Shown in pieces: positions 118 through 3,870 of a stretch of DNA of 34,119 nucleotides. The notes below the pieces were generated by a model. That model did not search any database. It worked only from the letters and a program-made list of their open reading frames with translations, and was not told the DNA's origin. The DNA comes from a virus. The position numbers and the translations under genes are program-made. The number at the start of each line of letters is the position of its first letter. Position 1 is the stretch's first letter. Location of the stretch: the IMG/VR virus record IMGVR_UViG_3300009180_000122, positions 1 through 34,119 of that record. One strand, 5' to 3'.

Positions 118-615
118 GTGCCAAAAGGTGTCTACCCACACACTCATATCAAGCCAAAGGTTTATCCGCAGGCGATGGTTGAGGCAGTGAAAAACTTGTA
201 CTACGACAAGCAAATGTCGCAAGTAGAGGTAGCGCAGGAACTCGGCGTGACCAACAAAGTGATTTGGAAGTTGATGGTGAACCACCAACTTGCCACTCGT
301 CCACAGGTCAAGCGGAACCAGTTTGGTACAAACAACACTTCTTGGCGTGGTGATAACGCTAGATACGAAGCCCTGCACGTAAGGGTAAATGTTTCTAGGG
401 GTAAGCCCAAGTTGTGTGTCCGTTGTGGTGAAACCGACCCTGCCGCAAGGTACGAGTGGGCAAATCTCACGGGCGAATACACAAATGTAAACGATTATGA
501 GCGTATGTGCGTGGCTTGTCACCGCAAGTTTGATGCAAAACGCCGTTTGGAAACCGGCGAGCGAACCTCGCCAACTAGGGGAGGTGATGCCCAATGCCCG
601 ACAAACAACAACTAA
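118..615 (+). CDS. HNH-type endonuclease with N-terminal helix-turn-helix
   Basis: A 165-residue protein read from GTG 118, giving MPKGVYPHTH, a typical start for phage HNH proteins. An in-frame TTG at 100 is possible but lies inside the hairpin and upstream of the likely transcription start. Residues about 20-60 look like a helix-turn-helix (EVAQELGVTNKVIWKLM). The C-terminal half has the phage HNH zinc layout: CVRC, then YEWANLTGEY, DYERMC and CVACHRKFD. Proteins of this kind act as homing or virion-associated nucleases. The gene overlaps the start of the C5-methyltransferase (594) by 22 bases. The first catalytic His of classical HNH enzymes is not obvious, as is common in this subfamily. 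Confidence 0.8.
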   Translation: MPKGVYPHTHIKPKVYPQAMVEAVKNLYYDKQMSQVEVAQELGVTNKVIWKLMVNHQLATRPQVKRNQFGTNNTSWRGDNARYEALHVRVNVSRGKPKLCVRCGETDPAARYEWANLTGEYTNVNDYERMCVACHRKFDAKRRLETGERTSPTRGGDAQCPTNNN

Positions 616-680
616 CAGCAGTATCCTTGTTTGCGGGTGTCTAGGTCGGTGGTTTCGATTTAGCCCTTGAACGACAAGGC
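594..680 (+). pseudogene. Detached N-terminus of the C5-cytosine methyltransferase, cut by TAG at 642
   Basis: A very good ribosome binding site (GGAGGTGAT) precedes ATG 594, which reads MPDKQQLTAVSLFAGV, then TAG at codon 17, then VGGFDLALERQGVK in the same frame, running straight into the 681-2765 reading frame. C5 methyltransferases carry motif I as FxGxGG. Here the expected FAGVGGF is split by six extra bases (TAGGTC) between GTC and GGT. The insertion both stops translation and separates the SAM-binding glycines. Several other genes in the window end in TAG, so TAG is a true stop here. Confidence 0.8.
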
Positions 681-2765
681 GTGAAGGTCGTTGCTGCGGT
701 GGAAATAGATAAGAACGCCAGAGGTGTCCTTGCCCATCGCTTTCCAAATAGCACACTCTTTCCCGATGTTACGGAGGTAACAGGTGAGCAACTTATTTCA
801 GCCGGCTTTGTTCCCGAACGAGGCATTATCACAGGAGGCTTCCCCTGCCAAGACCTCTCCGTTGCTGGAAAACGGGCCGGACTGGCTGGCAAGCGTAGTG
901 GCCTCTTTTGGCAAATCGCTCGCCTCATTGACGAACTCACGCCGCAATACTTCATCCTCGAAAATGTTCCCGGTCTATTGTCCTCAAACGGAGGAGGAGA
1001 CTTTGGAGCCGTCTTACGGGCGCTGGTTGAGCGCGGGTACGGGGTCAGTTACCGAGTTTTGGACGCTCAACACTTTGGAGTACCACAACGCAGACGGCGC
1101 GTGTTCATTGTCGGCAGTTTTGGAGACACCGGGGCCACAACTAGTGAAATACTCGCTCTCACCGAGGGCTTGTCGGGGCATCTTGAACAGAGCATTGAGA
1201 AGGGGAAAAACCCTTCCACCACTTCTAAACGCCGCACTCGAAGCGGTAGCGGAGAAGGAAGCGGCGTAGATGCCAACGATGTAGTTGTTGGTCCGCTAAC
1301 AGCAACAGGTATGTCTCGCGCTAGAGGCACAGAAACAGTTGAGAGTAATCACCTCGCTATGGAACAATCCCCTGTCCTCGCCTTTAGTGGCGGTCAGTCA
1401 TCAGGCTCATACGGCTTGGCTATTGACGACAATGTTGCCCCACCGCTTCGTGCTTGTGGTGGAAACAACTCAATGGCAACGATTATGGTTCCCGACCTTG
1501 ACACAGGGCCGATTTTCTTTGATAGTGCCACACACGGCGATGGCGCTCGTATTGCTGAAAAGACCATCCCGACCTTGACTTCCCGTATGGGAACAGGTGG
1601 AAACAACACGCCACTCGTTGCTTACGCCGACCCTATTGGGTTTAGCCACACCCAAGGGCTAAGCGCCCAAGCCTCTACCAGTGCGTTCCCCACGCTTCGT
1701 AGTGGTGGCGCTGGTCACGCAGTAATGGAACTCACGCCTCTCGTGGCTTATGCCGGCCCCGTAATCGGTATTGACCAAGAACTCAATGCCCGTGAGGACT
1801 TGATGGGAACGCTACAAGCCGGTGCTGATAGCGGCACACGGATGCAAGCAGTTGCCTACTCGGTTCGTGAGGATGCCCAGAGCGACACTTTCAGCGCCAC
1901 GGAACTCACGGCGGTCAATGCCCTACAAGCCCACCAGCCTTCAGTACAGAGCCACCACGCCCAGACCTTTATCGTTGAGCCAGCCATTTTCCCTATCCAA
2001 GATGGGCGCGAGATGGACCACAAGCAGAACGGCCTCGGAGTGGGTAGTGAAAACGACCCCGCTTACACGCTGCTTGCCACAGGCGGCCAAAGTGTCGCGC
2101 TCGCCTTTGAGCCGGGTGCTATGAGCCGACTTCCAAACCGTCGCTTGGAAAGCGTTACGCAGACCCTTCGCGCCCACGCAGGAGATAATCAGCAAGCCGT
2201 TCTTATTACCGATGACCCCACGGCGTTCCCATTGGACTTGCGAAATGCCACCCGTGACCCAGAGAAGTTGGATGCACAGAACCGACAAGGAGTAGGCGTA
2301 GGTGGTGAAAACGACCCCAGCCCAACCCTTACCTCGGCTTCAGTTCACGGCGTAGCAGTCTCTTACGATGGCTACAACCAGAGCGTTGAGGTGGAAACTT
2401 ATCGTTCCCTTCGCACCGGCAGAGACAGTTCAGACTTCGTGGCAACCCTGTCAACCGACAATGTGGTTTCACCAACCCTCACGGCTTACAATATGGATAG
2501 CCGTTCGCCCCAGAGCGAGGAAAGCCAGCGTATCGTTGGTACGGTTCACGCAGTCACCTCAACCGTTCGCCGCCTAACGCCGATGGAGTGTGAGCGCCTT
2601 CAAGGATTTGACGATAACTGGACAGCCTTCCGCATTGACGAAAAGAAGGGCTTAGTTCCCCAAGCCGATGCACCTCGCTACAAGCAGATGGGCAACGCCG
2701 TTGCTGTTCCGGTAGTGGAGTGGATAGTCAAGCGGCTCGTAGAGGTGGATAGAGCCTGTGCCTAA
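681..2765 (+). CDS. C5-cytosine DNA methyltransferase, N-terminally interrupted
   Basis: The 694 residues from GTG 681 carry nearly all C5-methyltransferase motifs: catalytic PCQ at about 55-57 (GGFPCQDLS), ENVPGL at about 94-99, QRRRRVFIVGS at about 136-146, and near the C-terminus RRLTPMECERLQGF and the RYKQMGNAV motif that completes the SAM pocket. Motif I is lost because the real start at 594 is cut off by TAG 642. A product from 681 should bind SAM poorly or not at all. Between motifs VIII and IX lie about 450 residues of degenerate repeats of roughly 40 residues, each with a PTL- or PL-like core and ending near VAF or VAY. This is where target-recognition domains sit, and a repeated one would resemble multispecific phage enzymes. 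The last codons overlap the next methyltransferase by 8 bases. Confidence 0.85.
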   Translation: MKVVAAVEIDKNARGVLAHRFPNSTLFPDVTEVTGEQLISAGFVPERGIITGGFPCQDLSVAGKRAGLAGKRSGLFWQIARLIDELTPQYFILENVPGLLSSNGGGDFGAVLRALVERGYGVSYRVLDAQHFGVPQRRRRVFIVGSFGDTGATTSEILALTEGLSGHLEQSIEKGKNPSTTSKRRTRSGSGEGSGVDANDVVVGPLTATGMSRARGTETVESNHLAMEQSPVLAFSGGQSSGSYGLAIDDNVAPPLRACGGNNSMATIMVPDLDTGPIFFDSATHGDGARIAEKTIPTLTSRMGTGGNNTPLVAYADPIGFSHTQGLSAQASTSAFPTLRSGGAGHAVMELTPLVAYAGPVIGIDQELNAREDLMGTLQAGADSGTRMQAVAYSVREDAQSDTFSATELTAVNALQAHQPSVQSHHAQTFIVEPAIFPIQDGREMDHKQNGLGVGSENDPAYTLLATGGQSVALAFEPGAMSRLPNRRLESVTQTLRAHAGDNQQAVLITDDPTAFPLDLRNATRDPEKLDAQNRQGVGVGGENDPSPTLTSASVHGVAVSYDGYNQSVEVETYRSLRTGRDSSDFVATLSTDNVVSPTLTAYNMDSRSPQSEESQRIVGTVHAVTSTVRRLTPMECERLQGFDDNWTAFRIDEKKGLVPQADAPRYKQMGNAVAVPVVEWIVKRLVEVDRACA

Positions 2766-3870
2766 TGCTCGTATCCTCATTGGCGATGCTCGCAAGAGAC
2801 TTGCTGAAATCCCAGAAGGTTCAGTTCGCTGCGTAGTCACTTCCCCGCCCTATTTTGGATTACGGGATTACGGCACAGCCGACTACGAGGGTGGCGACCC
2901 AGCCTGCGAACACACTATTTCAGCGGCAGATGCAGACGGCAAGGCGGTCTTTACCGAGCGTGTTTCCCGTGGTGACAGAACCATCTGTATCAAGTGCGGG
3001 GCAACCCGTGTGGACAGCCAGATAGGTTTGGAACAAACCCCCGAAGCGTATGTTAGTGAAATGGTTGCTCTGTTCCGCGAGGTCTGGCGCGTATTGGCCG
3101 ATGACGGAACGCTCTGGCTCAACATTGGAGACAGTTATGCGATGTCCTCAATGCGTGGGGAAAATAGCGAGTTCAAGGGCAATGGGGTGAAACAGACCGC
3201 CGCCATAAATGGTGCGGTCAGACTTGGTAAGCGTGAAATACCAGCAGGTCTGAAGCCCAAAGACCTAATGGGTATCCCGTGGCGTGTCGCACTTGCCCTT
3301 CAGCAAGACGGTTGGTATTTGCGAAGTGACATCATCTGGGCCAAGCCGAACCCGATGCCAGAGAGCGTTCGTGACCGACCAACAAAATCGCACGAGTATC
3401 TGTTCCTTCTCACCAAATCACCAAAGTATTACTACAACTCCGAAGCAATCAAAGAGCCTGCCCTCACACCACCTACGACTGGCAGGGTCATTCCATATTC
3501 GGCTCACACTCAAACAGGCGGAATAGCAACACAAAATCTCGGAACCTCTATGCCAGATGGCAAGCGCAACAAGCGTTCAGTTTGGACTATCAACACCAAG
3601 CCGTTCAAGGGCGCACACTTTGCCGTGATGCCAGAAGCACTTGTTGAGCCGTGTGTGTTGGCAGGTTCAGCACAAGGAGATACTGTCCTTGACCCATTTA
3701 CGGGAAGTGGCACAGTAGCCGTAGTTGCCCTACGACACGGCAGGAACTTTATCGGCACAGAACTCAACCCCGAATATGGTGAAATCGCCTACAACCGCAT
3801 TACTGGCGACCAACCCCTAATGAACCAAGTCGTGCTGGATTTCAGCACCGAGACAAAGGAAGCAGTATGA
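2758..3870 (+). CDS. Beta-class N4-cytosine/N6-adenine DNA methyltransferase
   Basis: A 370-residue protein from GTG 2758. The catalytic motif IV TSPPYFGLRDYG (about 28-39) comes first and the SAM-binding motif LDPFTGSGTV (about 311-320) last, the beta-class order. FIGTELNPEY (about 330-339) follows as expected. The S of SPPY favours N4-cytosine methylation, but N6-adenine enzymes with this motif exist. An insert at about 50-90 holds a CxH pair and a CIKCGA pair that probably bind zinc, common in phage members. It overlaps the broken C5 enzyme by 8 bases and the next gene by 4 (ATGA), so the genes are probably cotranscribed. It appears intact. No restriction endonuclease is adjacent other than the HNH protein, so it is best read as an orphan phage methylase. 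Confidence 0.9.
   Translation: MPNARILIGDARKRLAEIPEGSVRCVVTSPPYFGLRDYGTADYEGGDPACEHTISAADADGKAVFTERVSRGDRTICIKCGATRVDSQIGLEQTPEAYVSEMVALFREVWRVLADDGTLWLNIGDSYAMSSMRGENSEFKGNGVKQTAAINGAVRLGKREIPAGLKPKDLMGIPWRVALALQQDGWYLRSDIIWAKPNPMPESVRDRPTKSHEYLFLLTKSPKYYYNSEAIKEPALTPPTTGRVIPYSAHTQTGGIATQNLGTSMPDGKRNKRSVWTINTKPFKGAHFAVMPEALVEPCVLAGSAQGDTVLDPFTGSGTVAVVALRHGRNFIGTELNPEYGEIAYNRITGDQPLMNQVVLDFSTETKEAV

What the first reader, a model, noticed from the sequence alone, without database searches (positions are those of the whole stretch)
594..700. Motif I of the C5 methyltransferase is split by a six-base insertion carrying a TAG
The true start (ATG 594, strong Shine-Dalgarno) reads straight into the enzyme, but FAGV and GGF are separated by TAGGTC. 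The insertion both ends translation at codon 17 and destroys the SAM-binding glycine loop, while about 700 downstream codons remain intact. That pattern suggests a very recent loss, a reversible on/off state, or a sequence or assembly error. It is notable in a genome under heavy apparent restriction pressure.
Basis: partly seen in the sequence, partly recalled or inferred. Interest (0 to 1): 0.72.

Follow-up and report, generated by a model that had tools for sequence, protein, structure and literature searches.

The report
Stop-hop cassette inside phage methyltransferase
The stop codon that seems to kill this phage DNA methyltransferase is not a random mutation: the same kind of tiny stop-led insert, always next to a conserved RNA hairpin and usually beside a homing nuclease gene, recurs in many unrelated phage methyltransferases, which suggests that ribosomes hop over it.

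Summary
In detail: a C5 methyltransferase ORF starts at ATG 594 and is cut at codon 17 by TAGGTC (642-647) inside motif I. About 700 downstream codons are intact. The reading as a lone recent loss, an on/off state or an assembly error is not supported. A second contig (99.96% identical over 14.2 kb, six SNPs) carries the same insert. Pattern scans found 17 distinct phage or prophage C5 methyltransferases split at exactly this point by 5 or 6 nt; 16 inserts begin with an in-frame stop (TAG, TGA or TAA). The codons before the stop keep encoding L-F-S/A-G-x under strong purifying selection. All carry a hairpin, with compensatory changes, whose 3' arm is those codons; intact homologues lack it. 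In 12 of 17 an HNH nuclease gene or its remnant lies just upstream, and relatives without the cassette show the insertion site is motif I. In the window a hop of tRNA-Val from GTC over TAG to GTC would restore the homologues' FAGV-GGF. Best explanation: the right end of an HNH homing cassette, protected by a short stop-led gap that ribosomes bypass, like T4 mobA/gene 60. The bypass itself is inferred, not shown.

The parts
118..615 (+). HNH endonuclease gene (ORF open from 100; GTG 118 is a likely start), overlapping the methyltransferase start
   Evidence: PHROG 8446 HNH endonuclease E=2.5e-19; C..CG...YEWANLTGEY...MC..CHRKFD; homologues directly upstream of methyltransferases in Gordonia phages Lton and Gudmit
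580..586 (+). Shine-Dalgarno sequence GGAGGTG; GGAGGTGATGCCC is shared with Gordonia phage Lton
   Evidence: direct reading
594..641 (+). 5' coding segment (copy-B type): ATG to the codon before the stop, MPDKQQLTAVSLFAGV
   Evidence: window versus L139 pN/pS 0.06 over 10 codons
594..640 (+). hairpin: 5' arm 594-608 (one bulged A at 601), 3' arm 627-640 formed by the codons of motif I
   Evidence: arm duplex -17.2 kcal/mol versus -6.0 and -6.7 in intact homologues L002 and L003
639..641 (+). putative take-off codon GTC (Val)
   Evidence: position relative to the stop; inference
642..647 (+). six-base insert TAGGTC: in-frame stop TAG 642-644 and putative landing codon GTC 645-647
   Evidence: absent from L002 and L003; present in L001/L015; equivalents in 16 further loci
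648..2765 (+). rest of the C5 methyltransferase, from GGFDLAL to the stop, with motifs IV, VI, VIII and X
   Evidence: PF00145; motif check; dN/dS 0.14 against L002

Best explanation
This is the right-hand end of a mobile HNH homing-endonuclease cassette sitting in motif I of a phage C5 methyltransferase. The cassette brings the nuclease gene, a ribosome-binding site and a replacement 5' end of the methyltransferase. It closes with a 5-6 nt gap that begins with a stop codon. At the DNA level the gap separates the two halves of motif I, and so would spare the carrier from its own nuclease (inferred). At the RNA level the ribosome translates to codon x of F-A-G-x and meets the stop in its A site. 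A conserved hairpin made by the codons just translated re-forms behind it and helps peptidyl-tRNA slide over the gap. In the window this is tRNA-Val moving from GTC 639 to GTC 645, after which decoding resumes at GGT 648 and FAGV-GGF is made exactly as in homologues. Shown: insert, recurrence, position, HNH linkage, conserved stop, conserved hairpin with compensatory changes, and selection on both flanks. Inferred: the nuclease target, the protective role, and the ribosomal bypass.
For: (1) Recurrence: 17 distinct loci with a 5-6 nt interruption at the same point. (2) The stop is conserved as a stop: in a scan that left the five inserted bases free, 12 of 13 distinct methyltransferases had TAG, TGA or TAA directly after codon x; the exception L159 has AGG there. 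(3) Hairpin: mean MFE -21.4 versus -8.7 kcal/mol in 65 intact genes, P=6e-8. Leaders pair with their own arm, 0 of 20,000 permutations as good. 100% of pairs kept with 8 doubly compensated cells in a gap-free 7-row alignment, 0 of 500 shuffles as high on covariation. (4) Codons before the stop are under purifying selection, pN/pS about 0.1. (5) Most insert-bearing genes with enough contig keep motif X and an open frame. (6) HNH gene or C-terminal remnant directly upstream in 12 of 17. (7) L131 versus L077 is an occupied/empty pair at one locus with the cassette in motif I. (8) Related cassettes in the window (6 nt) and L139 (5 nt) differ in gap length and so in frame, which a bypass tolerates but plain read-through or one frameshift does not. 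(9) T4 gene 60 precedent: stop after the take-off codon, 5' stem-loop, and a possible origin as protection against a neighbouring homing nuclease (PMC5009743).
Against: No expression, proteomic or methylation data exist here. The codon before GG matches the take-off codon perfectly in the window and L139 and by third-base wobble in L150, but many loci have ACC, ACT, AGC or AAC there, so codon-matched landing is not general. The leaders (12-27 codons) are too short for a T4-style nascent-peptide signal. Insert-bearing genes are scattered among intact ones in the tree, so exon-2 integrity may partly reflect recent acquisition. L139 has two more lesions and L147 continues in another frame. Upstream sequence in the window ends 117 bases before the HNH start, so the left half of the cassette cannot be seen.
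Confidence: 0.6

Rival explanations
1. The HNH cassette simply knocks out the methyltransferase. The stop-led insert is the selfish element's immunity scar, and the enzyme is not made; downstream codons are intact only because each invasion is recent.
For: Insert-bearing genes sit next to intact ones in the tree, with at least four to six changes of state. Homing elements can spread even when harmful. L139 shows further lesions.
Against: It does not explain why 12 of 13 inserts begin with a stop, why a compensated hairpin is kept, why LFSGx codons before the stop are under purifying selection, or why inserts persist in loci where the HNH gene is only a remnant or absent.
Confidence: 0.2
2. Other recoding: -1 frameshifting in the 5-nt genes and stop read-through in the 6-nt genes, giving an enzyme with two extra residues in motif I.
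For: Both routes would give the same product length (x plus two residues before GG). Stop codons and nearby RNA structure are typical recoding signals (for the structure).
Against: Two mechanisms are needed for one element; no slippery site is present (AUU would re-pair at CAU or AAU); two extra residues would distort the SAM-binding glycine loop; related cassettes change between 5 and 6 nt.
Confidence: 0.1
3. The hairpin and stop-led gap act in DNA mobility (for example as a single-strand end recognised by a transposase or the nuclease), not in translation.
For: The hairpin lies at the cassette's right border and the cassette moves between genes.
Against: The hairpin arms are coding, with a ribosome-binding site and start codon; in-frame stops are conserved; several loci lack an HNH gene yet keep the hairpin.
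Confidence: 0.07
4. Sequencing or assembly error, or TAG read as sense.
For: Single metagenome contigs can contain errors; no tool result here supports it.
Against: A second contig with six SNPs has it; equivalents occur in cultured Gordonia phages and in prophage records that appear to come from isolate genomes; TAG ends 8 of 34 ORFs in the window and there is no tRNA gene.
Confidence: 0.03

Closest known systems
Phage T4 mobA / gene 60 (HNH homing endonuclease plus 50-nt translational bypass)
   Same: Nuclease gene upstream in a split gene; insert near the start of the downstream ORF; stop codon directly after the take-off codon; 5' stem-loop; proposed role in protection against a neighbouring homing nuclease (PMC5009743; PMC2988022)
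   Different: Gap is 5-6 nt, not 50; no KKYK-type nascent-peptide signal; landing codon not always matched; found in C5 methyltransferases of many phages; bypass not demonstrated here
Synthetic 'stop hops' (matched codons flanking a stop; nine bases give one residue)
   Same: GTC TAG GTC in the window is exactly this layout
   Different: Natural setting; the 2016 review said no natural in-frame stop hop was known (PMC5009743)
ShiLan domain (HNH insertion in a mycobacteriophage methylase)
   Same: HNH element invading a conserved stretch of a phage methylase without a detectable intron or intein; flank-like sequence repeated in the element (PMC11855218)
   Different: ShiLan reads in frame without a stop and is thought to stay in the protein; here a stop and a hairpin mark the junction
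Corndog tape-measure and split methylase genes
   Same: HNH insertion next to a phage gene with bypass considered as an explanation (PMC4351075)
   Different: Different gene and layout; a non-AUG start was not excluded

Membership tests
T4-type homing-endonuclease/bypass cassette | HNH endonuclease gene directly upstream of the recoded gene | tested here: met
   Window 118-615, PHROG 8446; HNH gene or remnant in 12 of 17 loci
T4-type homing-endonuclease/bypass cassette | In-frame stop codon immediately after the take-off codon | tested here: met
   TAG 642-644; 16 of 17 loci
T4-type homing-endonuclease/bypass cassette | Stem-loop 5' of the take-off codon | tested here: met
[quoted passage not shown]
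   Perfect in the window (GTC/GTC) and L139 (GTT/GTT), wobble in L150 (ATT/ATC); not in ACC, ACT, AGC and AAC loci
T4-type homing-endonuclease/bypass cassette | Long (about 50 nt) gap and nascent-peptide signal about 30 residues upstream | tested here: not met
   Gap 5-6 nt; leaders 12-27 codons. So it is not filed as a member of this family; the claim is that it works like one
T4-type homing-endonuclease/bypass cassette | Ribosomes measurably bypass the gap | not testable with these tools
   needs expression or peptide data
Group I intron | Match to a group I intron covariance model | tested here: not met
   No Rfam match at gathering threshold in 11 loci
C5 cytosine methyltransferase (PF00145) | PF00145 profile and motifs IV, VI, VIII, X | tested here: met
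C5 cytosine methyltransferase (PF00145) | Uninterrupted motif I F-x-G-x-G-G in the DNA frame | tested here: not met
   split by TAGGTC; a homologous gene whose product would need bypass to regain the motif
C5 cytosine methyltransferase (PF00145) | Methylation activity | not testable with these tools
   none

The most novel reading that the evidence does not exclude
A widespread family of natural mini-bypass ('stop-hop') elements: HNH homing cassettes in phage C5 methyltransferases whose 5-6 nt stop-led gap, with a compensated 5' hairpin, is skipped by bacterial ribosomes. The window would be an in-frame case with perfectly matched GTC codons.
Probability: 0.55. Interest if true: 0.93.

Novelty: new variant of a known kind. 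Interest (0 to 1): 0.85.

Why it matters
Programmed bypassing in phages rests almost entirely on one case, T4 gene 60. A set of short, recurrent, natural variants with a shared hairpin, including cultured Gordonia phages, would make the requirements for ribosome take-off and landing testable by comparison. It would also support the idea that bypass elements arise as self-protection of homing nucleases. It warns annotators that such 'broken' or frame-shifted phage methyltransferases may be functional.

Tried and rejected
Group I intron: no Rfam match, and the codon-sized gap leaves no room for one. Intron splicing from an upstream exon copy: several insert-bearing genes (L147, L151, L155, L159) have no upstream copy. 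TAG reassignment: TAG is an ordinary stop here. A codon-matched hop as the universal rule: fails for about half the loci. Reinitiation at the stop: a suitable start in the downstream frame exists only in the TGA subset. A genome-contig scan for the 6-nt form gave only three chance hits. Other-stop or other-codon scans gave chance hits that were discarded after translation. L126 has a one-base change without hairpin or stop at the site and was left out of the set. E. coli genomes hold no match to L159.

Full report
1. The observation. ATG 594, preceded by GGAGGTG, opens MPDKQQLTAVSLFAGV, then TAG (642-644), GTC, and GGT GGT TTC GAT. The frame stays open to TAA 2763-2765. The protein from 645 matches PF00145 at 5e-63. 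The closest relatives L002 and L003 read LTAVSLFAGVGGFDLALERQGVKVVAAVEIDKNARG without the six bases. A second contig, IMGVR_UViG_3300010885_026348, has the same insert and differs from the window at six positions over 14,237 bases, so an assembly slip is unlikely. TAG ends 8 of 34 listed ORFs and there are no tRNA genes, so TAG is not recoded genome-wide.

2. It recurs. A degenerate search for a TAG-led six-base insert at this point found two prophages, L016 and L017, whose unrelated methyltransferase reads LFSGI*VGGFDLAAEW with TAGGTT. Gordonia phages Lton and Gudmit, found through the neighbouring HNH gene, read LFSGY-TGA-AC-GGC. Their intact relatives read LFSGYGG, so the insert follows the native codon. 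A scan for five-base stop-led inserts found many more: TAGTT (L138/L153, L139), TAGTC (L140, L151), TGACC (L141, L146, L147), TGATG (L143/L144/L148), TGATC (L150), TGACT (L131), TAACT (L154) and TAAGC (L155). L139 is a relative of the window's own enzyme. A scan leaving the five bases free added one true case, L159, with AGG instead of a stop. In that scan 12 of 13 distinct methyltransferases begin the insert with a stop; by chance it would be about 3 in 64. The cassettes are related, so this is not 13 independent trials, but TAG, TGA and TAA all occur, which points to conservation of the stop itself.

3. The cassette. An HNH endonuclease gene overlaps the start of the window's methyltransferase (118-615; PHROG 8446). 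An HMM of this family finds it just upstream of the insert in L015-L017, L114, L115, L131, L140 and L154. C-terminal remnants lie there in L138/L153, L139, L143, L146 and L150. In L131, L154, L140, L138, L141 and L146 a second, uninterrupted copy of the methyltransferase 5' end lies further upstream. The layout is: native 5' end up to motif I, HNH gene, replacement 5' end with its own start, stop-led gap, rest of the enzyme. L077 is the same phage locus as L131 without the cassette: upstream sequence is closely similar, and the cassette sits in motif I. HNH neighbours without an insert exist too (L119, L121, L135, L137). The window's contig starts too close to the HNH gene to show the left half.

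4. The hairpin. In the 17 distinct loci the codons for F-S/A-G form the 3' arm of a hairpin with the leader (in L114 and L115 alternative folds compete, but the arm pairing is present). Mean energy of the 65-nt region is -21.4 kcal/mol (z -3.4) against -8.7 (z 0.0) in 65 intact genes, P=6e-8. In the window, 594-608 pairs with 627-640, from the start codon to the codon before the stop; its own z-score is modest (-1.6), and the case for it rests on the family. Leaders pair with their own arm better than with others': 0 of 20,000 permutations as good. In a gap-free alignment of seven loci all eight pairs are kept in every row, with eight doubly changed cells; sliding the partner drops pairing to 14-63%. 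The intact relatives L002 and L003 lack it, with arm duplexes of -6.0 and -6.7 against -17.2 kcal/mol. Two of 65 intact controls have an arm duplex as strong as the weakest insert-bearing locus.

5. Selection. Codons before the stop are conserved as protein: pN/pS 0.10 and 0.12 in two groups, and 0.06 between the window and L139. The search patterns demanded F-S/A-G but not the residues before it, which are conserved as well. Downstream genes keep motifs IV, VI and usually X, with low dN/dS. The tree shows insert-bearing genes scattered among intact ones, so part of this may reflect recent acquisition. L139 has further lesions and L147 continues in another frame.

6. Mechanism. A stop directly after a conserved codon, a hairpin that can re-form behind the ribosome, a short gap of variable length and frame, and a neighbouring homing nuclease are features shared with T4 mobA/gene 60 (PMC5009743; PMC2988022; PMC11194080). 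In the window take-off and landing codons match perfectly, and a hop gives FAGV-GGF, exactly the homologues' motif I. Read-through or a single frameshift cannot serve both 5- and 6-nt forms. The landing codon is not matched in many loci, the leader is too short for a T4-type nascent-peptide signal, and nothing here measures translation, so I give the bypass about 0.6. The claim that this is a recurrent, structured element and not a lone random loss is much firmer (about 0.9).

7. Known or new. The T4 cassette, synthetic stop hops, the ShiLan insertion (PMC11855218) and Corndog (PMC4351075) are the nearest precedents. The 2016 review states that no natural in-frame stop hop was known. I found no paper describing this set, within an open-access library only. 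Because the long gap and nascent-peptide signal of T4 are not met, I do not file it as a member of that cassette; I say it most likely works like it, and rate it a new variant of a known kind.

Noticed in passing
L147 exon 2; L016 760-1638; L017 5004-6053; Paenibacillus phages Lily and Bloom: A second long ORF in another frame overlaps the target-recognition region of these C5 methyltransferases (LLPTPTA.D...); in L147 the C-terminal half with motif X is only in that frame, so another frameshift or dual coding may be involved.
   Followed up: partly
L139, about 650 bases into exon 2 and beyond: The relative of the window's enzyme has a frame change and a further stop in the variable region before an intact C-terminus.
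   Followed up: partly
L017 6511-8919: The DnaB-type helicase gene upstream of the prophage methyltransferase appears to contain an intein-like insertion.
   Followed up: no
window 1 and L001/L015: Two contigs that differ at six positions begin at the same base, upstream of the HNH gene, which may reflect a variable or repeated flank there.
   Followed up: no
window 2758-3870: A second methyltransferase gene (PF01555, N6/N4 type) overlaps the end of the C5 methyltransferase by a few bases.
   Followed up: no
L126 about 1966-1985: HNH-linked methyltransferase with one extra G in motif I but no stop at the site and no hairpin; possibly an error or a different lesion.
   Followed up: partly
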